DNA of 63,620 nt from Treponema sp. (lineage in GTDB: Bacteria > Spirochaetota > Spirochaetia > Treponematales > Breznakiellaceae): positions 1 through 63,620 of the forward strand of contig JAITHL010000191.1 of assembly GCA_031279975.1 (NCBI GenBank), read 5' to 3'. Made by a program: the position numbers and the translations under genes. Each line of letters begins with the position of its first letter. Positions within the stretch are counted from its first letter, which is position 1. Of this stretch, positions 46,330 through 62,792 are shown piece by piece. The notes beneath the pieces were generated by a model. The model searched no databases, was not told the origin of the DNA, and was given only the letters and a program-made list of their open reading frames with translations.

Positions 46330-48330
46330 CTAACGGATATAGGCGTCGTGATACCCGCTCTGTTTGAACTGCTGGAGCAAGGGGCCGGTTTCGCCGGAAT
46401 TAAGCGGGCCGATCAGAATACGGTAGAGGGGTTTCTCCGGATTCTTGCCCCCAGGTTGAACCACTAAGGGGTAGGATTGGCCAATCTGGGTAAGTTGATT
46501 CTCCACGTCTTCCGGTTTATTGTAGGCCACAATCTGTATATACTTTTTCCCGCTCTCCAAACTGGTAATCAGGGGGACCGAAAACCGCCGGTCCGCCGGG
46601 GGCTCTAGCGCGGCGTTTTGCCGGGCCGGCGGCCTCTCTTGAAGCAATTCAGGCGGGAGTTCGGTAAACAGGTCCGGCGGCAAGGGCCGGGAAGCGGGCG
46701 CCTTGGGCTGGGCCGCCGGGGGATCCGGATTCCGCGCTGAGGGGGCGGCGTTTTGCCGGGCCGGCGGCCTCTCTTGGAGCAACTCAGGCGGGAGTTCGGT
46801 AAACAGGTCTGGCGGCAAGGGCCGGGAAGCGGGCGCCCTGGGTTGGGCCGCTCCGGCGGATGGAGCCACCGCAAGTCCGGCGCTTTGCGGCGGCTTTGCG
46901 GGGGCCGGCGTATGTTCTGTCAAGGGGGAAATCCGGTTCGGCGAAGGGCTTGGGCGTTTTGGAATCGGCGGTATTTCCGACTCCGGGGGCAGGTTCCAAT
47001 TCCGGGTATTCTGGGGCGGCCGTTTATCCGCCGGATCAAGATAGATAGAGAATTCACCCGGAGGAACAGGCTGTACCGGCGGTTCAGGCGGTTTTGCCAA
47101 AAACGGGGCCGCCGGCTGTTTTGCCGGATCCTGCGCCGGGAGTCCGGGCCGTTTTGCCGCCGGCAGGTCCGCCGGTTCCGCGGGCTTTGCCAAGGGCTGT
47201 ATGCTTTCCGCTTCCGGCTGCGCTAGGGGCTGGGCAACCTCTGGTTCCGCTTCCTTTGCCTTTGCCAAAGGAAGCGCCGGTTCCGCGGGCTTTGCCAAGG
47301 GCCGTATGCCTTCCGCTTCCGGCTGCGTTAGGGGCTGGGTAACCTCTGGTTCCGCTTCCTTTGTCCCGGGCCGCGCGATTTCCGGCTCGGAGGGGCCCTT
47401 TACCGGCGGCTGCGCCGGTTCCGTTTTTGGGGGCGCGGGCCGGGCCGCCGGTTTCTGGGATGGTTTGTCCGCCGCGACCCACGGCGATACACCGGGAGGG
47501 GTGAGGGGTTCCCAAACATCAGGAGCGGCCGCTTGGGGCTCCCCCCGGAGGGTTTCCGGAGCGCCCGCCGCGCTTTGCATGGGGGCCGGTCTTTCCGTCC
47601 CCGTGGGAACGGGCTGGGGGAATTCCGTTATTTCAGGCGTTTCTTCCGGGGACGGCGAAAGGGCCGCGGAAGGCGCCGGATCGGCGCGGCTTACCAGGGG
47701 CGGATCGGATTTCCGGGTAAAATCCCAGGATACCTCGGGAAGATCGGAAATTATCATATCCTCCTGGGGGGGCGCGCCGGAACCATAGGCCTCTTCATAG
47801 GAAACACTGTATTCCGGGGAACGGGGGGATTCCGCCGGGGGTTTTTGAGGCGCTTCGGCGGGATATGCCCCGGAGGAAGCCGCTTCGGGGATCCCCTCTT
47901 CCGGGGCGGCGGAAACCGGCCTGGTCCGGACGGAATTTATGGCCGCCTGGGGATCAAAGTCCGGATCGCTGCGGGAATGGATTCCTTCGGGAAACTGGGA
48001 AAAGGCGATTGGGTCCGCCGGCATGGACATCCGAACCCGCCCGATAGACCGGTTGGCAATGCCGATGGCGTCGGCGGCCTCTTGGGAGAGCATCGCCAGA
48101 AGCCCCGGGGACTCCAATCCCGCGCTTACGATTACCCGGATAGATTTTCCGGTTTCCAAATTCACCACATCCACCACCGTATTGCGCGGGAAGGATTTGG
48201 TTGCCGCGTAATAACCCCTATCGGGAAGCTCCCCATTGCTGCTTACCCCCGCGGCGCCCTCCCAAATGGAAGCGCCCGCGCCTGCCAGCATAACGCCGAT
48301 TATTCCCAGTACCAGCCAAAATCGTTTCAT
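46330..48330 (-). CDS. SPOR-domain envelope protein with RlpA-like N-terminus
   Basis: A 666-residue protein: N-terminal signal or anchor (FWLVLGIIGVMLAGAGA), then about 80 residues resembling the double-psi barrel of RlpA (YYAATKSFPRNTVVDVVNLE; VSAGLESPGLLAMLSQEAAD), a Pro/Ala/Glu-rich linker of some 450 residues, and a C-terminal SPOR domain (about 585-666; KYIQIVAYNKPEDVENQL ... YRILIGPLNSGE) that binds denuded glycan. The linker contains two internal duplications (DLFTELPPELLQERPPARQN; AEPEVAQPLAQPEAES). Probably a wall-remodelling or septal factor, but RlpA catalytic residues are not evident. The ATG follows GGGTGAAGGC. Confidence 0.78.
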   Translation of the reverse strand: MKRFWLVLGIIGVMLAGAGASIWEGAAGVSSNGELPDRGYYAATKSFPRNTVVDVVNLETGKSIRVIVSAGLESPGLLAMLSQEAADAIGIANRSIGRVRMSMPADPIAFSQFPEGIHSRSDPDFDPQAAINSVRTRPVSAAPEEGIPEAASSGAYPAEAPQKPPAESPRSPEYSVSYEEAYGSGAPPQEDMIISDLPEVSWDFTRKSDPPLVSRADPAPSAALSPSPEETPEITEFPQPVPTGTERPAPMQSAAGAPETLRGEPQAAAPDVWEPLTPPGVSPWVAADKPSQKPAARPAPPKTEPAQPPVKGPSEPEIARPGTKEAEPEVTQPLTQPEAEGIRPLAKPAEPALPLAKAKEAEPEVAQPLAQPEAESIQPLAKPAEPADLPAAKRPGLPAQDPAKQPAAPFLAKPPEPPVQPVPPGEFSIYLDPADKRPPQNTRNWNLPPESEIPPIPKRPSPSPNRISPLTEHTPAPAKPPQSAGLAVAPSAGAAQPRAPASRPLPPDLFTELPPELLQERPPARQNAAPSARNPDPPAAQPKAPASRPLPPDLFTELPPELLQERPPARQNAALEPPADRRFSVPLITSLESGKKYIQIVAYNKPEDVENQLTQIGQSYPLVVQPGGKNPEKPLYRILIGPLNSGETGPLLQQFKQSGYHDAYIR

Positions 48331-48345
48331 GCCTTCACCCGTTCC

Positions 48346-48834
48346 TTATTTGATAGAGGAGATGATCCCCTGTGCCGCGTTTTTAGCGGCCCCCAATTCT
48401 TCGGCGACCGCCCCCGGGACGCCGGAATAGCGCCGCTCCGCTACCAGACGGCAGGGCTTAGTCTTAAAAAGCCGCAGAACCACCTGTTGGGGTTTCGGCG
48501 CCGACGGATTGGCGTTCCCCTGATAATCCAAGAGGGCAAGCAGGAAGAACTCCGCCCCCCCCGCCGCCGCCGCGTCGAAATCCCCTTGCACCTCCCGGGG
48601 CAAAACATCCGCATCCTCAAGGGCGATACGTTTTATCGCCCCGTTGCTCACGATATGGCCGGCCTCAAAAAAAATATCCATCAAGCCGTTCTCCCAATGG
48701 GAGGACGCTTCGGCCGCGCCGCCCCGGGGTATCCCCGTTTCCACCACTAGAAAGGAAACCATACGCGCTTCCAGGGATAAACCCGGTATGACGAGTAATC
48801 CCAACGCCAGCGCGCCTGCTTTCAAATAATGCAT
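48346..48834 (-). CDS. small exported protein of unknown function
   Basis: A 162-residue protein with a signal peptide (LKAGALALGLLVIPGLSLEA) and no lipobox. The mature part (MVSFLVVETGIPRGG ... FFLLALLDYQGN ... QQVVLRLFKTKPCRLVAERRY) looks alpha/beta, without a recognised family. AAGGAGG precedes the ATG with good spacing. It ends 15 bases before the SPOR-domain gene, so the pair is probably one transcript and one envelope function. Confidence 0.68.
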   Translation of the reverse strand: MHYLKAGALALGLLVIPGLSLEARMVSFLVVETGIPRGGAAEASSHWENGLMDIFFEAGHIVSNGAIKRIALEDADVLPREVQGDFDAAAAGGAEFFLLALLDYQGNANPSAPKPQQVVLRLFKTKPCRLVAERRYSGVPGAVAEELGAAKNAAQGIISSIK

Positions 48835-48953: not shown

Positions 48954-49496
48954 ATGCACTATTACGCCATACAGGTTAAGACCCGTGGAGAAGAAAAATA
49001 TATCAACCTGTACCGGGCCCTGTATCCGGGCAGGCCGGTGGAACTATACTTTCCCAAACGGGAACTGGTTATCCGCCGGCAGGGGGCCCTGATACCGGGG
49101 ACCCCGGCGATTTTTCCGGGGTATATTTTTCTTGAAGTTGAAAACACCGGCGATATCCGCCAGTACCAATGGGAATTCCGCCGGACCGAGGGGTTCTTCC
49201 GGTTTCTCAAATCCAACCAGAATATATGCGCCCTTCAGGATAAGGACCTGGAGGTGGCGCTCCATTTTATCAAAAAAGTCGGTCCGGTGGCCGGGAAATC
49301 CCGGGTCTATTTCAACGAAAATTCCCGGATCGTCGTGGTGGACGGGCCGCTTATGGGGCTTGAGGGAAAGATAATAAAAGTCGATAAGAGAAAAGGGAGG
49401 GCAAAGATCAAATTGGATTTATACGACGATTCCTTTTCTCTTGATTTGGCTTTTGAGGTGATAGAACCCGCTTCAACATCCCAACAGCGGCGGTGA
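48954..49496 (+). CDS. NusG-family specialised antiterminator (LoaP/RfaH-like)
   Basis: A 180-residue NusG paralogue with an NGN domain (YYAIQVKTRGEEKYI ... IFPGYIFLEVEN; about residues 1-110) and a C-terminal KOW motif (VVVDGPLMGLEGKIIKVDKRKG, split, about 125-165). General NusG is normally next to secE/rplK; this copy instead heads a run of sugar-biosynthesis genes, the setting of LoaP/RfaH/UpxY-type factors that let RNA polymerase read through long polysaccharide operons. It may act on its own operon. A TATAGT lies 20 bases before the ATG, but no good -35. Confidence 0.85.
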   Translation: MHYYAIQVKTRGEEKYINLYRALYPGRPVELYFPKRELVIRRQGALIPGTPAIFPGYIFLEVENTGDIRQYQWEFRRTEGFFRFLKSNQNICALQDKDLEVALHFIKKVGPVAGKSRVYFNENSRIVVVDGPLMGLEGKIIKVDKRKGRAKIKLDLYDDSFSLDLAFEVIEPASTSQQRR

Positions 49497-49537
49497 ATAC
49501 CGCGGGACGCGCAATATCCGCCAATCGGAACAATGCT

Positions 49538-51022
49538 ATGACAACAAAAAAATCGGGAAGGCTGTATATTATCGGCGCGGGGTTTGCGGGGCAGACCCTG
49601 GCTAATGAGATCAGAAAAAAAGCGATATTCGGCGAGGTGGTCGCCTTTTTGGACGACGATCCGGATAAGATAGGCCGGAAAATCTACGGGGTGCCCGTCC
49701 TGGGACCCATCCGGGATGTGGCCCGGCTCTTGCGGATGACCCCCGCGGACGAGGCGATCATCGCCATCCCGAACGCGAGCCGGGAATACCTCACGGAACT
49801 CTACGGCATTCTCAAGCGGGCGGGTTTTGAGCGGATACGCATACTGCCAGGCATATCCCAGATCATTGAAGGCGCCCCCCATCTCATCCAAACCCGTTCT
49901 ATCGATCCCCAGGACCTTTTAGGCCGCAACCCGGTAACGATCAACTTAAAGCAAAGCCTGGCCTACCTGCGGGGCAAGCGGGTCATGGTTACTGGCGCGG
50001 GGGGGTCCATCGGCAGCGAATTATGCCGGCAGCTGCTTTCCGGGGGCGCTTCCCGGCTCTACCTCTTCGGCCACGGGGAAAATTCTATTTACCAGATTGA
50101 TAGGGAACTGCGGCTGTTGCAGGATGAGGGGATAGGGGAAAAGGCGTCCCTGGTTCCAGTTATAGGGGACCTCAAAGACCGGGACTATATGGACTATATC
50201 ATCCGCAACCTCAAGGCGGATGTGATCTTCCATACCGCCGCGTATAAACACGTCCCTATGATGGAAGAAAATCCTATAGCGGCGGTTGAAAACAACTTTT
50301 TCGGTACCCTTAATCTGGTCAAGGCCGCCCGGAAGTACGGGGTGGACCGTTTTGTATTTATCACCACCGACAAGGCGGTGGAAGCTGTTTCGGTGTACGG
50401 CATCTCAAAATACCTCTGCGAACGGCTGATTCTGGAAGAAGCCCCCCGTGGCGGGGAAGAGCATTTTATGGTGGTCCGCTTTGGGAACGTCCTGGGGTCC
50501 CGGGGTTCCATCATGCCCCTCTTTCAAAAGCAGATAGAAACCGGCGGGCCGGTAACGGTTACCTCCCCCATGATGCGGCGCTGGTTTATGACCATCCCCG
50601 AAGCCTGCTCGCTGGTGCTTAAAGCCGGAGGGGTTGGGGAGCACGGCGGGCTCTACCTGTTGGATATGGGGGAGCCGGTTTACATTAAGGACCTGGCGGA
50701 ACAGATGATACGGTTCTATGGATTTGAGCCGGAAAAGGATGTGGCCATTGAGTACATCGGCCTTAGGCCGGGGGAACGGCTGGATGAATGCCTCTGGGGG
50801 CCTGATGAGGCGCCGGTACGGACCGGATACGACCGGATATTACGGGTGGAACGGAAAAAAACGCCGCTTTTGGACCTGGAGGCCCTCATAGAACTCCTGC
50901 GGCCCATCTGTTACCTTGACCCCCTCCGTCCTGAAAAATACCGGAACAGCCAGCTGTTGCGGGACCTGCTCCAAGGGGCTGTTCCGTCATTCACCATGCC
51001 CGCCTATGCCTATGGATGCTGA
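49538..51022 (+). CDS. CapD/FlaA1-like nucleotide-sugar dehydratase/epimerase
   Basis: About 494 residues. An N-terminal Rossmann domain (LYIIGAGFAGQTLANEI; about residues 5-120) precedes the extended SDR catalytic domain with GAGGSIGSELCRQL and the TTDKAVEAVSVYGISKYL active site. The family (CapD, PglF, WbpM) makes 4-keto-6-deoxy sugars from UDP-GlcNAc. Two oddities: the usual N-terminal membrane helices are absent, so it is probably soluble, and the active site has Tyr-xxx-Lys where long CapD enzymes usually have Met. A GTG at 49493 overlapping the NusG-like stop is an alternative start; I prefer the ATG at 49538. It overlaps the aminotransferase gene. Confidence 0.87.
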   Translation: MTTKKSGRLYIIGAGFAGQTLANEIRKKAIFGEVVAFLDDDPDKIGRKIYGVPVLGPIRDVARLLRMTPADEAIIAIPNASREYLTELYGILKRAGFERIRILPGISQIIEGAPHLIQTRSIDPQDLLGRNPVTINLKQSLAYLRGKRVMVTGAGGSIGSELCRQLLSGGASRLYLFGHGENSIYQIDRELRLLQDEGIGEKASLVPVIGDLKDRDYMDYIIRNLKADVIFHTAAYKHVPMMEENPIAAVENNFFGTLNLVKAARKYGVDRFVFITTDKAVEAVSVYGISKYLCERLILEEAPRGGEEHFMVVRFGNVLGSRGSIMPLFQKQIETGGPVTVTSPMMRRWFMTIPEACSLVLKAGGVGEHGGLYLLDMGEPVYIKDLAEQMIRFYGFEPEKDVAIEYIGLRPGERLDECLWGPDEAPVRTGYDRILRVERKKTPLLDLEALIELLRPICYLDPLRPEKYRNSQLLRDLLQGAVPSFTMPAYAYGC

Positions 51023-52304
51023 TATACCCTTTGCCCGCCCCTTTATCGGGCTGGAGGAAGAAACGGCGGTCCTCCGGACGCTTCGCTCAGGCTGGCTTAC
51101 CACCGCCGCTGAAGCGCTGGCCTTTGAACGGGAATTCGCCGGGTTCCTCAGCCGGCCCCCGGATTGCCTTGACACGGAGGGCCCGGGCCGGGAAACGCCG
51201 GCTTGCCGGGAACCTCCCCTCTGTTTGGCGGTCAATTCCGCCACCAGCGGCCTCCATCTGCTGGCAAAGGCCCTCTGCCCCGATATGGGACCCGGCGACG
51301 TGGCGCTGGTTCCTTCCTATACCTTTGCCGCCACCGCCGGGGTGGTCCGCTACAGCGGGGCGGAGGTGGTCTTTGTGGACAACAAAGCCGGTTCCTTCCA
51401 TATTGATCCGGAACAGGCCGGGCAAACCCTGGACCGGCTTTCCCAGGGGCTCCCGGCCTATCCGCGGCGCGGCGCGGCGCAAACCCGGGGCTTCGGCCCC
51501 CAGGGAAAGGCCCGGCTGCTTATTCCCGTACACTTCGGCGGGCTTCCCTGCGATATGGACGCCCTAAAAACCATAGGGGGCCGCTATGCCGTTAAAATCA
51601 TGGAGGACGCCGCCCACGCCTTTCCCGCCGCCCTTCCGGGGAACGCCTGGGCCGGGGACGCCTCGGACGGGGGGGTGTTTTCCTTTTACGCCACCAAGAC
51701 CATAACCACCGGTGAAGGCGGCATGGTGGTTGTCCGGGACCCGGCCCTGGCCCGGCGGATCGCCCTGCTCCGTTCCCACGGCATTGATAGAACCATTTGG
51801 AACCGCTATGCCGATCCCCGGGCGTCCTGGTATTACGAGGTCCTGGAGCCGGGGTTCAAATACAATCTGCCGGACCTGCTCGCCGCCCTAGGCCGGGCGC
51901 AGCTTTCCCGGGCCGCGGACCTTCTGGGGATGCGGAAACGCATAGCCCGGATGTACGACGCGGCCTTTGGGGATTGCGATCAATTCCTCCTGCCCCCCAC
52001 CGGTCCCGGAGACGCCCGGCATCTCTATCCCCTGCGGATCAAGCCGGAAACCCTTACTGTTAACCGGGATGAACTGATAAGCGTCCTGCAAGCCCGGGGA
52101 ATCGGCGTTTCGGTGCATTTTATTCCCCTGCACTGTATGCCCTATTATAAAAAACGCTATGCCCTGGAAGCGGAGGATTTCCCCGAAGCCCTCCGGTGTT
52201 TTCAGCGGGAGCTATCCCTTCCCCTATGGCCTGGCATGAGCGACGCCCAGGTAAACCGGGTAATCGATACGGTAACAGCCGCGGTCCGGGAAAACCGGCG
52301 CTAG
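51006..52304 (+). CDS. DegT/DnrJ/EryC1-family sugar aminotransferase
   Basis: A 432-residue PLP enzyme that would transfer an amino group to the 4-keto sugar made by the neighbouring CapD-like dehydratase. The PLP-binding Lys is in FYATKTITTGEGG (about residue 231); other family motifs are NSATSGLHLLAKAL, PSYTFAATAGVV, IMEDAAHAF and RSHGIDR. It contains a low-homology insert after the first helix (about residues 45-75). ATGs at 51006 and 51012 are both inside the end of capD; neither has a clear ribosome-binding site, suggesting coupling. Confidence 0.9.
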   Translation: MPMDADIPFARPFIGLEEETAVLRTLRSGWLTTAAEALAFEREFAGFLSRPPDCLDTEGPGRETPACREPPLCLAVNSATSGLHLLAKALCPDMGPGDVALVPSYTFAATAGVVRYSGAEVVFVDNKAGSFHIDPEQAGQTLDRLSQGLPAYPRRGAAQTRGFGPQGKARLLIPVHFGGLPCDMDALKTIGGRYAVKIMEDAAHAFPAALPGNAWAGDASDGGVFSFYATKTITTGEGGMVVVRDPALARRIALLRSHGIDRTIWNRYADPRASWYYEVLEPGFKYNLPDLLAALGRAQLSRAADLLGMRKRIARMYDAAFGDCDQFLLPPTGPGDARHLYPLRIKPETLTVNRDELISVLQARGIGVSVHFIPLHCMPYYKKRYALEAEDFPEALRCFQRELSLPLWPGMSDAQVNRVIDTVTAAVRENRR

Positions 52305-52319
52305 GGAACCGGCGGCAGT

Positions 52320-54416
52320 ATGGCGGATCGCGAGTTCTTTACCTCGGACCTGGAAGCGCCCCTGTATGCCCTGACCCTCCGTTCTCCCATCGCAAGGGGC
52401 CGGCTTGTCAGCGTCGAGTGCCCTAAATTATCCGTGAATTACGCCTTATTGCTTGCCCGGGATATTCCGGGGAAAAACCGCTTGGCTGGCCTGCCGGCGC
52501 CGGTCTTGGCCGAAGAGTCCCTTTCCTACTATGGGGAACCCCTGGGGCTGCTCATTGGCCCGGAGGCCGCCCGGCTGGAGGAAATCGCCGCCCGGTGTTA
52601 TATCAAAACCGAATCCGAAGCGCCCCCGCAAGACCGGGGCGCCCTTGCTGATTTGATCATAGCGGACCGGCGGCGGGCGCAAACCGGGGACCCTGAACAG
52701 GCGTTTCGGGAAGCAAAAAAGATCATGGAATTCGTGTATACAACGGGCATCCAGGATTATTGGTATTCCGAACCCCTCGGCGCGGTCGCCGATTGGGAAG
52801 ACGGGCGCATCCGTATCCATACCGCCACCCAATGGCCCTTTCATGTTAAACGTTCCGCGGCGGCGGTCCTGGCCCTCGATGCGGACGCGGTTTCCGTGGA
52901 GCCCGCCCGGATAGGGATACACCTGGAAGGCAAACTGTGGTATCCCTCCCTTGTGGCCTGTCAAGCGGCCCTGGGGGCCCTTTACATGAAACGGCGGGTC
53001 AAACTGATGTTTTCCCGGATCGAGGATTTCCGTTACGGCCCCAAACGGAACGCGGCTGAAATCCGCGTCCGCAGCGCCCTGGGGGAAGGGGGGGAACTCC
53101 TCGCCGTTGCTATCCGCGCCCTGGCGGACCTGGGTTCCTACGGGGTCTTTTCCAACGAAGTCCTGGACCGGACCTGTCTGGGCGCCCTGGGGCCGTATAA
53201 ACCGGCGGCCCTGGACCTTGAGGGGATTGCCTGCCTTACCAATATCCCCCCCGCCGGCCCCATAGCGGGCTTTGGCATGGCCCAGGGATTTTTCGCCGCG
53301 GAACGGCAGGCGTCCATCATCGCGGACGCCCTGCGGCTCGATCCCCTGGAATGGCGGAAACACCATTTTTTTAACCGGAAAAAACCCTCGGCCCTGGGAA
53401 TAAGCCTGGGGGACGCGGCCCCCTTGGACGGCATACTGGATACCGCCGCCTCTATGGGGGACTACCGCCGGAAATGGGCCTCCTACGAGCTCCAGCGAAG
53501 GTCCCGCGGAACAGGGAATGCCGAAGCCTTTGCGTCCCTCCGGGGAATCGGTATCGCCCTGGCCTATCAGGGCAGCGGGTTCCTCTATACTAGGCAGGAT
53601 GAAGGCCCCTACTCGGTCAGCCTAACCCTGGACAAGGAAGGGCGTCTGGACATCAGGACCAGCGTCATCGCCTCCCATGAGGAGTATACCGCGATTTGGA
53701 GGGAAATCGCCGCGGAAACCCTATCCATAGAGGCGCGGTCGGTACGGGTTATTCACGGAACGACCGATCAGGCGCCGGATTCGGGGCCCTCCGGCCTTTC
53801 CTGGAATTGCGCGGCCCTTACCGCGCTGGTGGAACAGGCATGCGCGGACATACGGAACCAGCGGTTCCGGGGCCCCCTGCCCATTACCGTAAGCCGGTAC
53901 TATGAACCCGCGGTAAAGCGGCCTGGGGAAGAGGGCGCGGAACGCCGTATAGACGCCAACTGTTTTGCCCGTCCGGGCTGGGCCGCCGCGGTGGTGGAAG
54001 CCGCCATTGACCCCGTCGAGTATAGACCCAAGGTCCGGGGGATATGGCTGGCGGTTGACGGCGGAAAAATTCTTTCCGAAGCCCGGGCCCGGCGTTCCCT
54101 GCAAGCCGCGGCGGTTCAAGCCCTGGGCTGGGCTTCCCAGGAATGTCCGGTCTATGAATCGGGGAGGCTTTCAGAGCGGCGGTCCTTCCATTACGCGCTC
54201 TGCGATCTTCGGGACATACCGCCCATTAGCATTGATTTTCTCTGGAATGAGACGCCGGTTCCCCGGGGCATTGGGGAACTGCCCTTCGGCTGCGTTCCCG
54301 CCGCCTATGTTCAAGCCGTATCTCAGGCTGTCGATCACCCCTTTACGCATATCCCCCTTACGGCCCGGGATATTTGGGAGGCCCGGCGCGTAAAAGACGG
54401 GAAGGAGGAGCAATGA
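52320..54416 (+). CDS. xanthine-dehydrogenase-family large subunit homologue, diverged at the cofactor site
   Basis: A 698-residue homologue of the molybdopterin subunit of xanthine/quinoline/CO dehydrogenases. Order and spacing of family blocks are kept: SPIARGRL, EPLGAVADWEDGRI, TATQWPFHVKRS, VKLMFSRIEDF, ALRLDPLEWRKHHFF. But the GGGFGxK cofactor motif is IHLEGK (about residue 200), the RGFG motif reads AGFGMAQ (about 318) and the final GVGEPP reads GIGELPFG (Glu kept, about 653). It may have lost the cofactor or bind something else. The stop overlaps the Fe-S subunit gene (ATGA). Family members are about 750 residues. Confidence 0.82.
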   Translation: MADREFFTSDLEAPLYALTLRSPIARGRLVSVECPKLSVNYALLLARDIPGKNRLAGLPAPVLAEESLSYYGEPLGLLIGPEAARLEEIAARCYIKTESEAPPQDRGALADLIIADRRRAQTGDPEQAFREAKKIMEFVYTTGIQDYWYSEPLGAVADWEDGRIRIHTATQWPFHVKRSAAAVLALDADAVSVEPARIGIHLEGKLWYPSLVACQAALGALYMKRRVKLMFSRIEDFRYGPKRNAAEIRVRSALGEGGELLAVAIRALADLGSYGVFSNEVLDRTCLGALGPYKPAALDLEGIACLTNIPPAGPIAGFGMAQGFFAAERQASIIADALRLDPLEWRKHHFFNRKKPSALGISLGDAAPLDGILDTAASMGDYRRKWASYELQRRSRGTGNAEAFASLRGIGIALAYQGSGFLYTRQDEGPYSVSLTLDKEGRLDIRTSVIASHEEYTAIWREIAAETLSIEARSVRVIHGTTDQAPDSGPSGLSWNCAALTALVEQACADIRNQRFRGPLPITVSRYYEPAVKRPGEEGAERRIDANCFARPGWAAAVVEAAIDPVEYRPKVRGIWLAVDGGKILSEARARRSLQAAAVQALGWASQECPVYESGRLSERRSFHYALCDLRDIPPISIDFLWNETPVPRGIGELPFGCVPAAYVQAVSQAVDHPFTHIPLTARDIWEARRVKDGKEEQ

Positions 54417-54898
54417 CCGTTAATTTTATCCTGAACGGGGAAGACGTATCCCTGCAAACCGAAGCGGACGCCCGGTTGATCGATTTGCTGCGCAAGAATT
54501 TCACCCTGCCCGGGGCCAAGGCCGGCTGCTTATCGGGGAATTGCGGGCTCTGTTTTGTCATCCTCAACGGGAAGGTGGTTCCCTCCTGTTTAATCCCCGC
54601 GTTCCGCGTCCGGGGCAGCGAAATCATCACCATCGAAGGTTTTTCCCAGACCGATGAATATCAGGATATTATCGCGGGGTTTCAGGAGGCGGGGGTAGCA
54701 TGCTGCGGATACTGCGATTCGGCGAAAATTTTAGCCGCCCAGGCGCTGCTGGAACGCCGCAGCCGGCCCGGACGGGAGGAGATACTGGACGCTTTTTCGG
54801 GCATTATCTGCCGGTGTACCGAGCCGGAAAGCCTCGCGGCGGGGATAAGCGCCACAGCGGATATTAGGCAGCAAAGACGCTATGGACGGGGGGTATAA
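54413..54898 (+). CDS. [2Fe-2S] subunit of xanthine-dehydrogenase-like complex
   Basis: A 161-residue protein with an N-terminal ferredoxin domain (GCLSGNCGLCFVILNG ... PSC; four Cys) and a C-terminal helical domain with a second set, CGYCDSA and CRCTEP. Canonical proteins read CGFCTPG and CRCTGY, so the cysteines are intact although the residues around them differ. It would pass electrons from the active subunit to FAD. The start is set by the ATGA overlap with the large-subunit gene; the frame is open further upstream. Confidence 0.9.
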   Translation: MTVNFILNGEDVSLQTEADARLIDLLRKNFTLPGAKAGCLSGNCGLCFVILNGKVVPSCLIPAFRVRGSEIITIEGFSQTDEYQDIIAGFQEAGVACCGYCDSAKILAAQALLERRSRPGREEILDAFSGIICRCTEPESLAAGISATADIRQQRRYGRGV

Positions 54899-55748
54899 CG
54901 GGGACGCGGCCCAGGGCGGGCCGCATAAACAGGTATTCTTCCCTCGAACCCTGCCGGAGCTTTTCACTGTTTGGAAACGCTTTCCCGATGCGGTTCCCTA
55001 TGCGGGGGGCACGGACCTGGGCAAGGGGCAGGAACGGAAGTATTCCTTGGAACTGCCCGCGGCCATACTATCCCTGAATTTTCTGGAAGAACTCCATCAT
55101 TTTACCCGGACCGAACGGTATATCGAACTCGGTTCTATGGTAAAACTCAATGACATTCTTACCATGGGCAAGATCGTGCCCCATGCCTTTACCCAGGCGG
55201 TCGCCCGCATCGCCTCGGTGGAGTTGCGGAATCTGGCCACCCTGGGGGGCAACATCTGCCATCCCGTCAAAGGGCCGGACGCCTCCGCGGCGCTTATCGC
55301 CCTGGACGCCCGGTATGAATTACGGAGCGCCCAGGCGTCCCGGTGGATTTCCGCGTCCCGCTTTGCCTCCGGCCCCTCAGCCGCGAATCCCCAGGAATTG
55401 CTTGTCCGCATCCGCATCCCCCTGGAGCAATGGGACTATACGCGGTATACACGCTTTGAGGACCGGTCTTTGGCATACGCCTCCGGCGGGTCTATGGTCG
55501 TGCTGGCCCGGAGCCAGAAGAATATTCTGACCGATTTGCGGGCGGTCTTTGCGGGGGAAAGCGTCCTGCGGGATAAAAACAGCGAAACCGCGCTGGCCGG
55601 CAAACGCCTGCCCCTGGACCGGCGGGACGCCGCCCATTTTATCGATCTGTGGAAGACCTACCTGTCGGCGGCGGAAGGGCCGGACCCCTTTTTAAAGGCG
55701 CGGATAGTACATGGTATTGAGGCCAGTATCCGGGAACTAACGGATTAA
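54882..55748 (+). CDS. FAD-binding subunit of xanthine-dehydrogenase-like complex
   Basis: A 288-residue protein of the CoxM/XdhB family. FAD motifs are PYAGGTDLGKG (about residues 40-50) and the second RNLATLGGNICHPVKG (about 115-130), close to the canonical IRNxATxGGN. It overlaps the Fe-S subunit gene by 17 bases. The three genes form a complete set of subunits, but no molybdopterin biosynthesis, XdhC-like maturation or transporter gene is nearby. Confidence 0.88.
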   Translation: MDGGYNGDAAQGGPHKQVFFPRTLPELFTVWKRFPDAVPYAGGTDLGKGQERKYSLELPAAILSLNFLEELHHFTRTERYIELGSMVKLNDILTMGKIVPHAFTQAVARIASVELRNLATLGGNICHPVKGPDASAALIALDARYELRSAQASRWISASRFASGPSAANPQELLVRIRIPLEQWDYTRYTRFEDRSLAYASGGSMVVLARSQKNILTDLRAVFAGESVLRDKNSETALAGKRLPLDRRDAAHFIDLWKTYLSAAEGPDPFLKARIVHGIEASIRELTD

Positions 55749-56053: not shown

Positions 56054-57151
56054 TTGAGCAAGCCAATCCGTGAATACCGTTTTCAGTTCGGCCTTTTTGC
56101 GTCCCAGGTACTGATTCAAGAGGCGCTTCCTGAATTTGAGGAACTGCGGAGGCTTCTGTTTCCTGATCCCCCCCATCCCCCGCTCTGTTTTGTTTGCGAC
56201 GCCCATACGGAAGCCCTTGCCCGCCGTATCAGGGGAAACCAAGCATCGCCCTGTTGCGTCCTTCCCCCAGGGGAAGAGGCAAAAACCTGGGCTTCCGTGG
56301 AACGGATTCTCAAAACGGCCTTAGACGCCGGGCTTGGCCGGGACGCTTTTTTTGTCGCGGTCGGCGGCGGCGTGGTAAGCGATCTGACCGCCTTTGCCGC
56401 GTCGGTGTATATGCGGGGGGGCCGGCTTTGCCTGATCCCCACTACCCTCTTGGGCATGGCTGACGCGGCCCTGGGGGGCAAAACGGGGATAGACCTTTTC
56501 GGGATAAAAAACCTCGCGGGGACCTTTTATCCCGCCTCCCTGATCTGCCTGTCCTTGGAAAGCCTGGCCTCCCTTCCCAAGGGGGAATGGAAATCCGGCA
56601 TGGCGGAACTCATTAAAGCCGCGATCCTTGAGGAGGATGGAACCCTGTTTGCCCGGATGCGGGCGCTCAAGGATGGCATGGCGCGGGGAAGCGTTTTTGA
56701 CGGCGGCGGGGGCCTCTTGGAGGCGCTGGCCCGGGCGGTGGAAATCAAGGGCCGCATCGTGGAAGCGGACCCCCGGGAAACCGGCTCCCAGCGGGCCCTC
56801 CTCAATTTAGGCCATACCTTCGGCCACGCCTTGGAAGCCAGCGCCGGGCTTGGCCGCGTTTCCCATGGGGAGGCCGTTGCCTGGGGCATGGTCCGGGCCG
56901 GGGCCCTGGGCCGGGCACTGGGCATTACGCCGGCGGACCGGGAGCGGGCCGTCCGGGAGCTTATCCTTGCCTACGGCTATGAGACACGCTCCCCCCATCC
57001 CTTAATGGGGGATAAGAAAGGGTTTATGCGGGCATTAGGGGGGGATAAAAAGAAAAAAGACGGTAAAGCTGTTTTTGTGGTTCCCGCGGAACGGGGCGCC
57101 CGGTTGATAGCCCTGGACTTGCGCGATCCCCGCGCGCAATCCCTCTGGTAA
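56054..57151 (+). CDS. aroB: 3-dehydroquinate synthase
   Basis: A 365-residue NAD-dependent enzyme that closes the ring of DAHP to 3-dehydroquinate in the shikimate pathway. NAD-binding GGGVVSDLTAFAASVYMRG, the substrate stretch PTTLLGMADAALGGKTGID and the zinc-ligand motifs LNLGHTFGHALE and SHGEAVAWGM are present. It starts with TTG at 56054, seven bases after GAGG; no ATG lies nearby. It links to aroH elsewhere in the window, both being aromatic amino acid synthesis genes. The next gene follows after 26 bases. Confidence 0.95.
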   Translation: MSKPIREYRFQFGLFASQVLIQEALPEFEELRRLLFPDPPHPPLCFVCDAHTEALARRIRGNQASPCCVLPPGEEAKTWASVERILKTALDAGLGRDAFFVAVGGGVVSDLTAFAASVYMRGGRLCLIPTTLLGMADAALGGKTGIDLFGIKNLAGTFYPASLICLSLESLASLPKGEWKSGMAELIKAAILEEDGTLFARMRALKDGMARGSVFDGGGGLLEALARAVEIKGRIVEADPRETGSQRALLNLGHTFGHALEASAGLGRVSHGEAVAWGMVRAGALGRALGITPADRERAVRELILAYGYETRSPHPLMGDKKGFMRALGGDKKKKDGKAVFVVPAERGARLIALDLRDPRAQSLW

Positions 57152-57177: not shown

Positions 57178-58962
57178 TTGAAACCATTGTTCAACAGCAT
57201 ACTTACCCGTTTGCGCGCCGGTATAACCCTGATTAAACTAGGCGCGTCCCGTTGTTTGATGTTCCTGCTGGTATGCTTTTTTTCCCTGGGCGCTTCCGCC
57301 CTGTTGCACGGCCAGGATACGGGAATTGGAGGCCAGAACTCCCCAAACAACGCCGGCTCCGATACTCCCTTGGGTAAAGACCGGAATGGGGAACCTAAAG
57401 ACGGCGATCCGGGGCTTTCCGGGAACGGGCCGGCCCAGGACCTGGACGGCGGGGACGCTCCCCAAGACAAGCCGGCCCCCGCTGGCAACGCCCGGACGGT
57501 TTACTATATCCGGCAGATCAACTTTAACCGTACCGGGTTGACCCGGCAGTTCGCCCTCTTGGAAAAGGGGGAATTGAAAACCGGAGAGCGTATAACCGGC
57601 GCCGCTAATCTGGAAAAATACCGGGAACAGAAGGCCCAGCTCCTCACGAATCAGCGGGTTTTAGACCGCGCGGATATTCAATATACCCTCGGCCCGCCGG
57701 AAGCCGACGGCTCCGTGCCGGTGGACCTCCTGGTTACCACGGTGGACAGTTGGAATATCATCGCCCTGCCCTATCCCAAGTATGATGATAATAACGGCTT
57801 TGAATTAATCATTAAGGCCCGGGACTATAATTTTCTGGGCACCATGAACCCCCTGCGGATCGATTTGGGCTACCAGCTTGACGCTGAATATATGGATAAT
57901 TTTTTCAAGAATTTATCCAAGGGCAATTTTGTTTTTTCCATTGATTCGGATACGCCCTTTACCTTTTTAGGCTATACCTGGACCTTAAATTTTGATCATA
58001 ATTTTGCCTATACCTACGATCAGCCCCTGTATTACAAAAATACCACCGGGATCGCTATTGAATATCCCGTTGATCTGATGACCGCGACCTTCGGGTTTGA
58101 GGAAGCCACCGTTGCCAACGAAGATAATGAAAAGGAATATGAACACGATTATATTCCCGAACGGGACGGCTCCCGGTTCAAAGACCTCTACATGGCCAGC
58201 ACCCTGTTTGTATCCTATAAGATACCCACCGGATTTTTTGTTGAGGATTACGGGGAGATCACCTATAATCCCAAATTATCTGGAACTATCAATATAACCC
58301 CTGGAGAGGATGTGGGGTATCTCCGGCAGGGGCCCAAGGTTGCCTTCGATCATACCTTGGGCTTCGGGCAAATCGATTGGATAGAAAATTTCCGCCGGGG
58401 TATCGCGGCTTCCCTGGGGAATGATAATTCTTATAATTTTTTCCGCCAGGAATGGAGTTCCTCGGCGAAGTTCAGCCTTACCGGCCATTTTATCCTGCCC
58501 AAATTGTTCGGCGTCTCCGCCGGCATATCCGGCAGGGCCCAATACCGCCATTGGTTTCATGGCCATTCAAACGACGCCGCGGATGCCCTGCGGGGCATCT
58601 TGGATAAGGCAATGGCCGCCAACTCTATGCTCTCGTTGAATTTGGATTTTCCCTTCCAGGTACTCCGGTTTACCCCGTCCAAATGGCTGAACGCCCCAAA
58701 ACTGAAACTTTTTGACGTGGACGCGCATATTTCTCCCATCCTGGATTTAGCCCTGGTAAACGACCCGGTACATAACCTGTCCCTCTCTCCTAGGGATATA
58801 CAGGCGACCGGAGGCGTGGAACTTATCATCTTTTCCCATTTTATGCGCAGCCTCTACCTGCGGATCAGCGCCGGCGTAAACCTGCGGGAAATGCTGGCCG
58901 TCCGCGGCATCCCCGATGGGAATAACCGGGAAATTTTTATCGGGCTGGGGCATCATTATTAA
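57178..58962 (+). CDS. Omp85-like outer-membrane protein (single POTRA + barrel)
   Basis: A 594-residue exported protein. Signal peptide: FLLVCFFSLGASALLHGQ (about residues 29-46). A Gly/Asp-rich linker is followed by a POTRA-like segment (YYIRQINFNRTGLTRQFALL ... QRVLDRADIQYTL ... VDLLVTTVDSW; about residues 100-195), and then a long beta-barrel region ending with the aromatic signature IFIGLGHHY. Resembles BamA/TamA relatives in having POTRA plus barrel, but with one POTRA at most, so BamA proper is unlikely. The TTG at 57178 is the likely start; the only ATG nearby (57259) would remove the charged part of the signal peptide. Confidence 0.72.
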   Translation: MKPLFNSILTRLRAGITLIKLGASRCLMFLLVCFFSLGASALLHGQDTGIGGQNSPNNAGSDTPLGKDRNGEPKDGDPGLSGNGPAQDLDGGDAPQDKPAPAGNARTVYYIRQINFNRTGLTRQFALLEKGELKTGERITGAANLEKYREQKAQLLTNQRVLDRADIQYTLGPPEADGSVPVDLLVTTVDSWNIIALPYPKYDDNNGFELIIKARDYNFLGTMNPLRIDLGYQLDAEYMDNFFKNLSKGNFVFSIDSDTPFTFLGYTWTLNFDHNFAYTYDQPLYYKNTTGIAIEYPVDLMTATFGFEEATVANEDNEKEYEHDYIPERDGSRFKDLYMASTLFVSYKIPTGFFVEDYGEITYNPKLSGTINITPGEDVGYLRQGPKVAFDHTLGFGQIDWIENFRRGIAASLGNDNSYNFFRQEWSSSAKFSLTGHFILPKLFGVSAGISGRAQYRHWFHGHSNDAADALRGILDKAMAANSMLSLNLDFPFQVLRFTPSKWLNAPKLKLFDVDAHISPILDLALVNDPVHNLSLSPRDIQATGGVELIIFSHFMRSLYLRISAGVNLREMLAVRGIPDGNNREIFIGLGHHY

Positions 58963-58978
58963 GGGCAAGGGAAGTACA

Positions 58979-59851
58979 GTGGCGGAAACAAGGCCAGCGG
59001 CGGGCGAAGAGGCCGTTCAATGGGATTCGATTATCGTATCCCGCAGGAAGCTGCTGGATATTCGTATCCGCGAGCTGATACGCTACCGCGATCTGGTCTG
59101 GCTTTTTATCAAGCGGGATTTCATCACCGTGTATAAACAGACGATACTAGGCCCCCTCTGGTATATTATCAACCCGCTTTTTTCGGCCGTAACGTATATG
59201 TTTATATTCGGCAATCTTGCCCGCATCGGCACCGATGAAATACCGCCGCTTTTATTCTATTATAGCGGAACAATGCTCTGGACCTATTTTTCCAAATGCC
59301 TCACCGATGTGAGCAATGTTTTTATCGATAACGCCGGGCTGTTTGGAAAAGTGTATTTTCCCCGGCTGACGGTTCCCATAAGCCGGGTTTTCAGCAACCT
59401 CATAACCCTTCTTATTCAGTTTGCCGCCCTGCTGTGCTTTTATCTATGGTTTATCATACGGGGGGCCCCGGCCCGGCCACTCCTGGGGGTATTGGCCCTC
59501 CCGCTTATATTCGCGTGGATTGCCCTGCTTTCCTCCGGTATAGGCATGGTAATCTCGGCCCTTACCACAAAGTACCGGGACCTCAAACAACTGGCCGGTT
59601 TCGGCCTGAGCCTGGCGATGTACGCGACGCCGGTTGTATACCCCCTTTCCCAGGCGCCGGAAAAATACCGCCCGCTGTTTTATCTCAATCCCATGAGCGC
59701 GCCGGTTGAGCTGTTCCGCCTATGGTTCTACGGCGCGGGCCATGCGCCCGCGGCAATGATTCTGGCAAGCGCCTCGGTTACGCTGGCTTTCTTTCTCTTT
59801 GGGCTCATTCTCTTTAACCGCAATGAGCGCGCCTTTGTTGACGTGATATAG
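58979..59851 (+). CDS. wzm: ABC-2 type polysaccharide exporter permease (Wzm-like)
   Basis: A 290-residue inner-membrane permease with six hydrophobic segments, of the family that exports O-antigen, teichoic acid or capsule. The N-terminal cytoplasmic IRELIRYRDLVWLFIKRDF helix and the segment QTILGPLWYIINPLF are classic for this family. The GTG at 58979 has AAGGGAAG upstream and is preferred over the ATG at 58916 inside the preceding gene. Its ATPase partner (wzt) is not adjacent: an AAA-ATPase gene intervenes. Confidence 0.9.
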   Translation: MAETRPAAGEEAVQWDSIIVSRRKLLDIRIRELIRYRDLVWLFIKRDFITVYKQTILGPLWYIINPLFSAVTYMFIFGNLARIGTDEIPPLLFYYSGTMLWTYFSKCLTDVSNVFIDNAGLFGKVYFPRLTVPISRVFSNLITLLIQFAALLCFYLWFIIRGAPARPLLGVLALPLIFAWIALLSSGIGMVISALTTKYRDLKQLAGFGLSLAMYATPVVYPLSQAPEKYRPLFYLNPMSAPVELFRLWFYGAGHAPAAMILASASVTLAFFLFGLILFNRNERAFVDVI

Positions 59852-59861
59852 CGGCGTTGTT

Positions 59862-61469
59862 GTGAAACCGCGATTGAGGAAAGGGCAGCCAAGGCATACC
59901 GCGCCGGTAAAACGCCCGGTACGTTTTTTTAATACCACCGGCCCCTGCAATCCCTGGGAACACTATATGCTTCCGCCTGAAGACCGGCTTGCGGGAGCGC
60001 GGCTCCGCCGGTACATAAAAGACAAACTGTACTGGGTACTGCACGCGCCCCGCCAGACTGGAAAGACCACTTTTTTACTGGATTGGACGCGCCGTATTAA
60101 CGCGGAGAACGAAGCCGCGGCCTGCTATGTAACAATAGAAACCGCGCGGGGGCTTAAGGAGCCTGAACGGGCAATGCCGTCGATATGCGAGTCAATTATG
60201 CTGCATGCCGAATGGCAGGGCATTAAGAAACCCGCGCCTACCACTGACATACCCTCGGATATGGCGCGGGATATATTGAAGAACTGGGCAAAACTGACCG
60301 GGCCAAAACCGCTTGTCGTGCTGTTTGATGAAGTTGACGCCCTGGAAGGGGAGGCTATGATAAGTTTCCTGCGCCAACTGCGAAGCGGCTTTATGAGCCG
60401 GGGCGTTGGAACCTTCCCGGTATCTATCGCGCTTGTTGGATTTCACGATCTAAAGGACTATATAACCGCGGCGAAAGACGGCGTTCCGCCAAGCCCGCTT
60501 TCGCCTTTTAACATCAAGGCGGATTCAATCCTTCTTGAGAACTTTTCTCAAGAAGCGGTGCGAAACCTATTTAAGCAGCGAACCGAGGAGACGGGGCAGC
60601 GCATAACCGATGAGGCGGCCGCGTATGTATGGGAACAATCCCAAGGGCAGCCGTGGATTGTTAATTCGCTCTTCCAACGGGCGACCATGCGTATACTGCC
60701 GGAAGATGATTACCGTACCGTAACGCTGGAACACCTGGAAAACGCGCGGGAACAGATGCTCCTTGCCCGGGAAACCCATCTTGATTCCCTTGCCGTCAGG
60801 CTGCGGGATCCCGCTGTCCGCGGCATGATCGAAGCCCTGATAACCGGCACTCCTGACCCCCGGCTTACCTCAGGCGAAGGGTTTCGTATATGTCTTGATC
60901 TAGGGCTGGTACGGAAGGAACGGGGGACGCCGGTAATAGCGAATCCGCTTTATAAAGAGGTTCTTGCGAGGCAGTTGACCTATTCCGCGCAAGACGCCAT
61001 CCCCGAACCCGAATGGCAATGGGAATTGGCTGACGGATCGCTTGACATGGACTCGCTGCTGCGGGAGTTTCAAAATTTCTGGCGCGAACATTCGGAAATA
61101 TGGGAAGATAAGATGGAGTATACCGAAGCGTTTCCCCATTTGCTGTTAATGGCGTTTCTCCAGCGGGTGTTGAACGGCGGCGGCGGAATAGAACGGGAAT
61201 ACGCGGCGGGCAGGGGCAGAATGGATTTACTGGTTGAATATAAGGCAAAAAAATACGTGATAGAAATCAAGCTGATCCATGAAAAACAGGGGGCGGAGGC
61301 CGTTAAAATGAAGGGCCTGCGGCAAGCCGCCGCGTACCGGGACGCCAAAGCCCCGGGCGCCCCCGCGTATCTGGCGGTCTTCGACCGGCGGGCGGCGGCG
61401 AAAGAAAAAAGCTGGAATGAACGGCTTACCTGGAATAGGGAGGGCGGCGTTACCGTGATAGGATGCTGA
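59862..61469 (+). CDS. AAA-ATPase with C-terminal PD-(D/E)XK nuclease-like domain
   Basis: A 535-residue protein of a group common in spirochaetes and Bacteroidetes. N-terminal signature RFFNTTGPCNPWEHYMLPP leads into a P-loop (HAPRQTGKTTFLLDW), Walker B (LVVLFDEVDAL) and a winged-helix-like region. The C-terminus has GRGRMDLLVEY ... KKYVIEIKL, matching the D-(E)xK signature of PD-(D/E)XK nucleases. Role unknown; related genes are often mobile or defence-associated. It separates wzm from wzt in the same direction: 10 bases after wzm, and it ends directly at the wzt ATG. GTG start at 59862 without a clear ribosome-binding site. Its base pattern has fewer G and C runs than the rest of the window. 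Confidence 0.85.
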   Translation: MKPRLRKGQPRHTAPVKRPVRFFNTTGPCNPWEHYMLPPEDRLAGARLRRYIKDKLYWVLHAPRQTGKTTFLLDWTRRINAENEAAACYVTIETARGLKEPERAMPSICESIMLHAEWQGIKKPAPTTDIPSDMARDILKNWAKLTGPKPLVVLFDEVDALEGEAMISFLRQLRSGFMSRGVGTFPVSIALVGFHDLKDYITAAKDGVPPSPLSPFNIKADSILLENFSQEAVRNLFKQRTEETGQRITDEAAAYVWEQSQGQPWIVNSLFQRATMRILPEDDYRTVTLEHLENAREQMLLARETHLDSLAVRLRDPAVRGMIEALITGTPDPRLTSGEGFRICLDLGLVRKERGTPVIANPLYKEVLARQLTYSAQDAIPEPEWQWELADGSLDMDSLLREFQNFWREHSEIWEDKMEYTEAFPHLLLMAFLQRVLNGGGGIEREYAAGRGRMDLLVEYKAKKYVIEIKLIHEKQGAEAVKMKGLRQAAAYRDAKAPGAPAYLAVFDRRAAAKEKSWNERLTWNREGGVTVIGC

Positions 61470-62792
61470 ATGGGTACTATTGCTATTCGCGTAGAACATC
61501 TGTCAAAATTATACCGGCTTGGGGAGATCAATAACGGCGCCCTGTTTAGGGATATACAAACATGGATAGCCCTGAAAAGAGGGAAGGAAGACCCCCACGG
61601 GAAAATCAAGGATCACGCCTATGCCGGCGGCGCGGATCGCTTCTGGGCTTTAAAGGATGTTAGTTTTGATATAAAACAAGGAGACCGGGCCGGCATTATC
61701 GGCAGGAACGGCGCTGGAAAGAGCACCCTTTTAAAAATACTTTCCCAGATAACGGCCCCAACGGAAGGCGCTATTAAGATCAAGGGAAAAGTCGCGAGCC
61801 TTCTTGAGGTGGGCACGGGATTTCACGGCGAATTAACCGGCAGGGAGAATATCTACCTGAACGGCGTTATCCTGGGCATGAAAAAGCGCCGGATTGATCA
61901 GAAACTCGATGAGATTATTGCTTTCAGCGGCATAGAACAGCATATAGACACCCCGGTAAAGCGGTATTCCAGCGGCATGTACGTCCGCCTTGCCTTTGCC
62001 GTGGCCGCCCATCTGGACAGCGATATATTAATCGCCGATGAGGTTTTGGCCGTTGGGGACGCGGCGTTTCAAGAAAAAGCCCTGGGCAAAATGCGTGATT
62101 TGAGCGCCGGGCAGGGCAGGACGGTCCTCTTCGTGAGCCATAATATGGGGGCGGTTGAGCGGTTATGCAACCGGGGAATACTGCTGGAAAACGGGAGCGT
62201 TACCGCGGATTCGGACTACATTACTTCGGTAATAAAACAGTATATTGCCGCGCCGGGGGAAGGAAGCGGAAAATACCGGTGGCGCAACAGCGGGGAGGCA
62301 TATAATAATCCCTATTTTAAACCATTGGAATTTTACGCCGCCGGCAGGAATGGCGGGGTAATTCAGGAAAGTATTACAAACAACAGCGAATGCTGGATAA
62401 CGATTGTAGGGGAAATACAGGAACAGGATATCGCGCTTTGTATTGGGTATGCTATCTATACTAGCAACGGTTTACTTCTCTATCAGTCTTGTCAGATAGA
62501 TGAGCCGCGGGAAAAGTGGCCTGATTTAACGCCGGGAATCTATACATTACGAAGTAAAATACCGGAACGTCTTCTTAATGAGGATGAATACCGCATAGAG
62601 TTACTAAGCACCATGATTAATAGATTTTGGATCGCGGAACCAATGGTTAACGCCCCGGCGATACAACTGACCATTAACGGCGGCCTTAGCGACTCTCCTT
62701 ATTACTATGGGAAAAGGCCCTGTATATTAGCGCCTATTATTCCCTGGGAGGCAGAAAAAGTTGACTATGCCAAAGACACGGGAAACCGTTAA
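61470..62792 (+). CDS. wzt: ABC polysaccharide exporter ATPase (Wzt-like) with C-terminal substrate domain
   Basis: A 440-residue protein. The ABC domain (about residues 1-265) has Walker A GRNGAGKST, signature motif YSSGMYVRLAFA and Walker B ILIADEVLAVGD, with the family-typical N-terminal insert before the Walker A. Residues about 280-435 form the beta-rich Wzt C-terminal domain (ITNNSECWITIVGEIQ ... GIYTLRSKIPERLLNEDEYRI) that binds the glycan end group. The C-terminal part is notably more AT-rich than the ABC domain. It follows the AAA gene without a gap and overlaps the Wzi-like gene by 26 bases. Confidence 0.93.
   Translation: MGTIAIRVEHLSKLYRLGEINNGALFRDIQTWIALKRGKEDPHGKIKDHAYAGGADRFWALKDVSFDIKQGDRAGIIGRNGAGKSTLLKILSQITAPTEGAIKIKGKVASLLEVGTGFHGELTGRENIYLNGVILGMKKRRIDQKLDEIIAFSGIEQHIDTPVKRYSSGMYVRLAFAVAAHLDSDILIADEVLAVGDAAFQEKALGKMRDLSAGQGRTVLFVSHNMGAVERLCNRGILLENGSVTADSDYITSVIKQYIAAPGEGSGKYRWRNSGEAYNNPYFKPLEFYAAGRNGGVIQESITNNSECWITIVGEIQEQDIALCIGYAIYTSNGLLLYQSCQIDEPREKWPDLTPGIYTLRSKIPERLLNEDEYRIELLSTMINRFWIAEPMVNAPAIQLTINGGLSDSPYYYGKRPCILAPIIPWEAEKVDYAKDTGNR

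What the first reader, a model, noticed from the sequence alone, without database searches (positions are those of the whole stretch)
52320..55748. Molybdenum-hydroxylase-like complex that appears to have lost its molybdopterin site
The three subunits of a xanthine-dehydrogenase-type enzyme are all present and in frame, and the Fe-S and FAD motifs are kept. Yet the large subunit reads IHLEGK where family members have GGGFGxK, and AGFGMAQ where they have RGFG. Only the final catalytic Glu remains (GIGELPFG). No maturation gene is nearby. To my memory, related genes also sit beside CapD/DegT genes in treponemes that cannot make molybdopterin. This may be a redox complex with a different cofactor or role, maintained as a conserved operon.
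Basis: partly seen in the sequence, partly recalled or inferred. Interest (0 to 1): 0.62.

Follow-up and report, generated by a model that had tools for sequence, protein, structure and literature searches.

The report
Spirochaete xanthine-oxidase relative without molybdenum site
Across the spirochaetes, including the syphilis bacterium, a three-protein complex that descends from molybdenum enzymes has lost the pocket for the molybdenum cofactor but is still kept by natural selection beside sugar-making genes, so databases that call it xanthine dehydrogenase are probably wrong about what it does.

Summary
The 698-aa subunit has the xanthine-oxidase (XO) fold and lies in frame with intact [2Fe-2S] and FAD subunits, but its cofactor loops are replaced. 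Alignment to solved XO enzymes recovers no cofactor motif elsewhere.

The change is not local. The cassette LoaP-CapD-DegT-large-FeS-FAD recurs through the class Spirochaetia (matches in 192/197 genomes of the order), including T. pallidum. In 106 such large subunits the RGFG Arg is present in 0 and the second Gly of GGGFG in 1; in 17 canonical paralogues, in 16 and 17. Cassette genes form one clade with motif columns removed. dN/dS is 0.05-0.28. MoaA and MoaC are both absent from 55 of 62 genomes tested.

Best reading: an ancient molybdenum-free derivative of the XO family, under selection in a nucleotide-sugar operon. Loss of the cofactor site is close to established. A flavin/Fe-S redox role is inferred; a scaffold role is the main rival. 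Earlier work (PMC6147048) flagged 'orphan' molybdoproteins but found no sequence feature; this clade has one.

The parts
52320..54416 (+). large subunit, 698 aa, XO fold (MoCoBD_1 + MoCoBD_2) without the molybdopterin motifs
52914..52937 (+). residues 199-206 GIHLEGKL in place of GGGFGGKE; the clade has [D/E]-G-[K/R]-[L/I]-W here
53265..53276 (+). residues 316-319 AGFG in place of RGFG (Arg lost in 106 of 106 cassette genes)
53676..53684 (+). residues 453-455 HEE in place of GQG
53769..53807 (+). residues 484-496 QAPDSGPSGLSWN, partly kept counterpart of the canonical PDSGPTVASR loop
54267..54278 (+). residues 650-653 GIGE, counterpart of the catalytic-Glu loop; Glu kept here, not clade-wide
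54413..54898 (+). [2Fe-2S] subunit, 161 aa, all eight ligand cysteines present
54882..55748 (+). FAD subunit, 288 aa (FAD_binding_5), AGGTDL and ATLGGNI kept
48954..49496 (+). LoaP-type transcription antiterminator at the head of the cassette
   Evidence: NF033641 131.4 bits, cut-off 125
49493..51022 (+). CapD/PseB-like nucleotide-sugar 4,6-dehydratase
   Evidence: Polysacc_synt_2 1.8e-104; catalytic Tyr in 75 of 75 readable copies
51003..52304 (+). DegT/PseC-like PLP aminotransferase (start codon not settled)
   Evidence: PLP Lys in 94 of 95 readable copies
56054..57151 (+). AroB-like gene that follows the cassette within the family; belonging to the system uncertain

Best explanation
An ancient, Spirochaetia-wide derivative of the molybdenum-hydroxylase (XO) family that no longer binds molybdopterin. 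The large subunit keeps the XO fold, but its cofactor loops have been rebuilt around a new [D/E]-G-[K/R]-[L/I]-W signature. It works with an Fe-S and an FAD subunit and is most often encoded with a LoaP antiterminator, a CapD-type dehydratase and a PseC-like aminotransferase. Shown here: loss of the cofactor motifs, one clade, conserved linkage, purifying selection, and absence of cofactor biosynthesis genes in most hosts tested. Inferred: in the window's organism and most relatives the complex is a flavin/[2Fe-2S] electron-transfer module that acts in or serves nucleotide-sugar or surface-glycan synthesis, with the former cofactor cavity filled or binding a substrate or partner. In some lineages (T. 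pallidum, an S. africana-like genome) Fe-S sites are lost too, so part of the role must not need electron transfer there. I put about 0.9 on 'no molybdenum cofactor' alone; the confidence given is for the whole statement including the redox role.
For: Arg of RGFG 0/106 in cassette genes against 16/17 in canonical paralogues; second Gly of GGGFG 1/106 against 17/17; new Trp 94/106 against 0/17. Same columns in HMMER alignments to solved XO enzymes. XO fold end to end, Z 38. One clade, SH-aLRT 100, motif columns removed. Conserved gene order across the class. dN/dS 0.05-0.28, and 0.05-0.08 in the T. denticola-like group. MoaA and MoaC both absent in 55 of 62 genomes. All eight Fe-S cysteines in 108 of 119 aligned subunits and FAD signature kept. 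PLP Lys of DegT and catalytic Tyr of CapD kept.
Against: No biochemistry. The window's own genome can probably make the cofactor. Loss of Fe-S ligands in T. pallidum and others argues against a universal electron-transfer role. Some loci lack CapD and DegT nearby, so the link to sugar synthesis is not strict. The model's cofactor loops are low-confidence and the alignment behind it is shallow.
Confidence: 0.55

Rival explanations
1. Pseudoenzyme or scaffold: the three subunits persist as a structural, binding or regulatory body (for example a platform for the sugar enzymes or a ligand sensor), and the flavin and clusters are structural.
For: T. pallidum copy has lost the plant-type cluster ligands, the related G247 copy most of them, and the S. 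africana-like L230 seven of eight cysteines, yet genes and order are intact. Catalytic Glu kept in only 74 of 106.
Against: Most lineages keep all eight cysteines and the FAD signature with Fe-S subunit dN/dS of 0.06-0.35, which a pure scaffold would not need.
Confidence: 0.27
2. The large subunit binds another organic or metal cofactor in the rebuilt cavity.
For: New conserved residues sit where the cofactor loops were: Asp/Glu203 and Trp207.
Against: The conserved set is short and mostly not metal-ligating; in part of the family Treponemataceae-like group even it erodes. No known cofactor motif was found.
Confidence: 0.1
3. It still binds molybdopterin through a divergent site.
For: The window's genome has MoaA, MoaC and MoeA; Q145 and E653 remain.
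Against: 55 of 62 genomes with the gene lack MoaA and MoaC; the residues that contact the pterin are replaced in every copy, also in hosts with the pathway.
Confidence: 0.04
4. Decaying remnant without function.
For: Loss of motifs; a capD stop codon in T. paraluiscuniculi reported in PMC3105029.
Against: dN/dS 0.05-0.28, class-wide retention including a 1.14 Mb reduced genome, frames intact in nearly all copies.
Confidence: 0.04

Closest known systems
Xanthine oxidase family, three-subunit bacterial type (PucCDE/XdhABC, nicotinate dehydrogenase, 4-hydroxybenzoyl-CoA reductase)
   Same: Fold, three subunits, [2Fe-2S] and FAD signatures, distant sequence homology
   Different: No GGGFG, RGFG or GQG motif; cassette with LoaP, CapD and DegT; present in genomes without the cofactor pathway
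'Orphan' molybdoproteins of the XO family (PMC6147048)
   Same: XO homologues in organisms without a complete cofactor pathway
   Different: That survey found no significant sequence-level feature; this clade has clear site losses, one origin and a fixed gene context. Whether these genes are in its list was not checked
T. pallidum TP0079-TP0081, annotated as xanthine dehydrogenase (PMC4403809)
   Same: Orthologous cassette: CapD-DegT-large-FeS-FAD at 84-91 kb of a 1,139,633-bp genome; 0079 and 0081 named so in the paper
   Different: The annotation assumes molybdopterin binding; the T. pallidum copy lacks the motifs and the plant-type cluster ligands
E1/E3 system of CDP-ascarylose synthesis (own knowledge)
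   Same: A DegT-family protein together with FAD and [2Fe-2S] proteins in a deoxysugar pathway
   Different: This DegT keeps the PLP lysine and has only one widely conserved cysteine column; the redox subunits are of the XO type

Membership tests
Xanthine oxidase family (homology and fold) | MoCoBD_1 and MoCoBD_2 over the Pfam cut-off; XO fold | tested here: met
   166.9 and 78.8 bits, cut-offs 27; Z 38 over 649 residues
Xanthine oxidase family (molybdoenzyme) | Molybdopterin-contact motifs GGGFG, RGFG and GQG | tested here: not met
   All three replaced
Xanthine oxidase family (molybdoenzyme) | Catalytic Glu | tested here: inconclusive
   Present in the window (E653) but only 74 of 106 in the clade
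Xanthine oxidase family (molybdoenzyme) | Molybdenum cofactor in the protein | not testable with these tools
   Needs metal and pterin analysis of purified complex
Xanthine oxidase family (molybdoenzyme) | Cofactor pathway in the host | tested here: inconclusive
   Present in the window's genome; MoaA and MoaC absent in 55 of 62 genomes tested
Named XO equivalogs (PucD, XdhA, HcrA, CoxL and others) | NCBIfam curated cut-off | tested here: not met
   Best 194.8 bits, cut-off 783.65
XO-type Fe-S subunit | Eight cysteines of two [2Fe-2S] clusters | tested here: met
   All eight in the window; 108 of 119 aligned subunits
XO-type FAD subunit | FAD_binding_5 with AGGTDL and ATLGGNI | tested here: met
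   110.4 bits, cut-off 27; motifs
E1/E3 deoxysugar system | DegT protein with His for the PLP Lys and its own cluster cysteines | tested here: not met
   PLP Lys in 94 of 95 readable copies; one conserved Cys column
PseB/PseC pathway enzymes | NCBIfam cut-offs for PseB and PseC | tested here: not met
   155.5 of 407.75 and 287.9 of 423.5 bits, though these are the best hits
LoaP antiterminator | NF033641 over cut-off | tested here: met
   131.4 of 125 bits

The most novel reading that the evidence does not exclude
The cavity that once held molybdopterin has become a binding site for a nucleotide sugar made by the neighbouring CapD-DegT pair, giving an XO-fold complex with a new, molybdenum-free chemistry that spirochaetes use in surface-glycan synthesis and that T. 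pallidum retains.
Probability: 0.15. Interest if true: 0.88.

Novelty: new variant of a known kind. Interest (0 to 1): 0.7.

Why it matters
The functional members of the XO family that I know of use molybdopterin (own knowledge). A class-wide branch that has dropped it yet is under strong selection bears directly on an open question: whether 'orphan' molybdoproteins in genomes without the cofactor pathway are Mo-independent (PMC6147048). It offers a sequence test and a set of organisms in which to do the experiment. It also means that the three 'xanthine dehydrogenase' genes kept in the reduced genome of T. pallidum, and their copies across the spirochaetes, are probably misannotated and point to an unknown conserved function next to sugar-nucleotide genes.

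Tried and rejected
2) Explaining the case by a host that cannot make the cofactor: rejected for this genome. 3) E1/E3-like dehydrase system: rejected. 4) Gene decay: rejected by dN/dS. 5) Defence role: no PADLOC hit. 6) Papers on TP0079-TP0081, on LoaP in Treponema, or on the CapD/DegT/molybdopterin combination: no functional study found in the open library. 8) Distribution outside Spirochaetota could not be settled: the one genome-contig scan, with a single protein as query, finds close relatives only. 9) MoaE as a marker of the pathway was dropped: it is found in only 2 of 150 genomes although MoaC is in 70.

Full report
What is there. Window 52320-55748 holds three overlapping genes on the + strand: a 698-aa large subunit (52320-54416), a 161-aa [2Fe-2S] subunit (54413-54898) and a 288-aa FAD subunit (54882-55748). 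Pfam and NCBIfam place all three in the molybdenum-hydroxylase (xanthine oxidase, XO) family, but every curated NCBIfam cut-off is missed by a wide margin. Upstream lie LoaP (48954), a CapD-type dehydratase (49493) and a DegT/PseC-like aminotransferase (about 51003); downstream come an AroB-like gene and an ABC exporter.

Cofactor site. Alignment to solved XO enzymes and to canonical paralogues puts IHLEGK opposite GGGFGGK, AGFG opposite RGFG and HEE opposite GQG. In bovine numbering (own knowledge of XO) F798, G799, E802, R912 and Q1040 are replaced, while Q767 and E1261 have counterparts (Q145, E653). No second copy of the motifs was seen. An AlphaFold model (14-row alignment, mean pLDDT 70.9, pTM 0.72) has the XO fold from end to end (Foldseek; VIA-align Z 38.0, rmsd 5.6, 649 residues). 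Its segments under pLDDT 50 include each former cofactor loop: 144-152, 198-206, 309-317, 450-453, 481-495 and 650-654. The alignment is shallow and there was no control fold, so this is suggestive only.

Not a local oddity. A protein search found matches in 137 of 150 genomes of the window's family. A profile of 64 family orthologues (A1) found matches in 192 of 197 genomes of the order and in many other families of the class. A bare match can be a canonical paralogue, so I read loci. In 64 family, 30 order and 13 class sequences (106 distinct genes; T. pallidum is in both of the last two sets) the cassette gene always lacks the Arg of RGFG (0 of 106; canonical paralogues 16 of 17). It lacks the second Gly of GGGFG (1 of 106; 17 of 17) and nearly always the Phe (7 of 106; 17 of 17). 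A Trp two residues after the Lys appears instead (94 of 106; 0 of 17), with Asp or Glu at the old Gly in 91 of 106. The catalytic Glu is kept in 74 of 106. The rows are related, so these counts are not independent events.

One origin. With six motif stretches removed, 35 cassette and 17 canonical sequences separate on one branch (SH-aLRT 100; quick tree, some long branches). The simplest reading is one loss of the site at or before the base of the sampled Spirochaetia. Borrelia-like small genomes of the class (family f7) have no match at all.

Linkage. The order LoaP-CapD-DegT-large-FeS-FAD recurs. Among loci with enough flank, FAD is adjacent in 103 of 105, FeS in nearly all, DegT in about 80 of 100, CapD in 70 of 91 and LoaP in 62 of 82 (cases flagged only because stop-to-stop frames overlap were added back for FeS and DegT). 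Some loci run LoaP-large-FeS-FAD without CapD and DegT (for example L093, L097, L161, L165), so the complex does not need them next door.

Cofactor supply. The window's genome carries MoaA and MoaC (contig C220), MoeA (C224) and a canonical 910-aa fused paralogue with GATFGYK, FRGYG, GQG and GVGE. So this host can probably make the cofactor. But of 62 genomes chosen for completeness or for cassette loci, 55 lack both MoaA and MoaC, and the two searches agree genome by genome (controls found in 11 of 14 reference genomes). In 28 of those 55 I read the cassette gene itself. One genome (G254) lacks MoaA and MoaC yet has canonical-looking paralogues, so absence of the pathway alone is not proof.

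Selection. Nei-Gojobori dN/dS for the large subunit is 0.05-0.28 in 14 close pairs, much like its neighbours; in the T. denticola-like group, where neither MoaA nor MoaC was found, it is 0.05-0.08. The genes are kept for a function.

What the function may be. Most cassettes keep all eight Fe-S cysteines (108 of 119 aligned subunits; two of the exceptions are truncated) and the FAD signature, which fits an electron-transfer module. But the T. pallidum copy has lost the plant-type cluster ligands (HNSY in place of CCCC) and keeps the other four; the related G247 copy is similar, and the S. africana-like L230 has lost seven of eight. A role that does not depend on electron transfer must therefore exist at least there. 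CapD keeps its catalytic Tyr in 75 of 75 readable copies and DegT its PLP Lys in 94 of 95, so the sugar pair looks active; a UDP-4-amino-4,6-dideoxy sugar as product is inference from PseB/PseC-like best hits below cut-off. An E1/E3-type partnership does not fit the DegT sequence. I rank a flavin/Fe-S redox role in or beside sugar-nucleotide synthesis first and a scaffold or binding role second.

What was known. T. pallidum 0079 and 0081 are listed as xanthine dehydrogenase by in-silico annotation (PMC4403809). A survey of molybdenum use reports several hundred organisms with only part of the trait, especially 'orphan' molybdoproteins, mostly of the DMSOR and XO families; [quoted passage not shown] capD has an internal stop codon in T. 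paraluiscuniculi (PMC3105029). I found no paper that describes this cassette or its loss of the site, but only the open library was searched.

Verdict. The claim of another cofactor is untested. Novelty: a new variant of a known kind.

Noticed in passing
window's family; own genome contigs C220 (L236) and C224 (L046): MoaE is found in only 2 of 150 genomes of the family, although MoaC is in 70 and MoeA in 50. The cofactor-making members seem to lack a recognisable molybdopterin-synthase large subunit.
   Followed up: partly
L230:9063-9599 and L233:9240-9734: The Fe-S subunit has lost seven of eight ligand cysteines in an S. africana-like genome and the four plant-type ligands in T. pallidum, in otherwise intact cassettes.
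   Followed up: partly
59862-61469: An AAA-ATPase/PD-(D/E)XK nuclease gene (AAA_22 below its cut-off, PDDEXK_9 above) sits between the permease (58916-59851) and the ATPase (61470-62792) of an ABC-2 exporter.
   Followed up: no
46330-48834 (-): A divergent pair, a 666-aa Pro-rich SPOR-domain protein and a 162-aa protein without Pfam hit, faces the cassette in most family loci and is itself conserved.
   Followed up: no
57178-58962: A 594-aa protein without Pfam hit follows AroB downstream of the cassette in most family loci with enough flank.
   Followed up: no
L178, genome G254: A single-contig 2.7 Mb genome has canonical XDH-type genes with intact motifs but no MoaA or MoaC hit, unlike its close relative G275, which has MoaC.
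   Followed up: no
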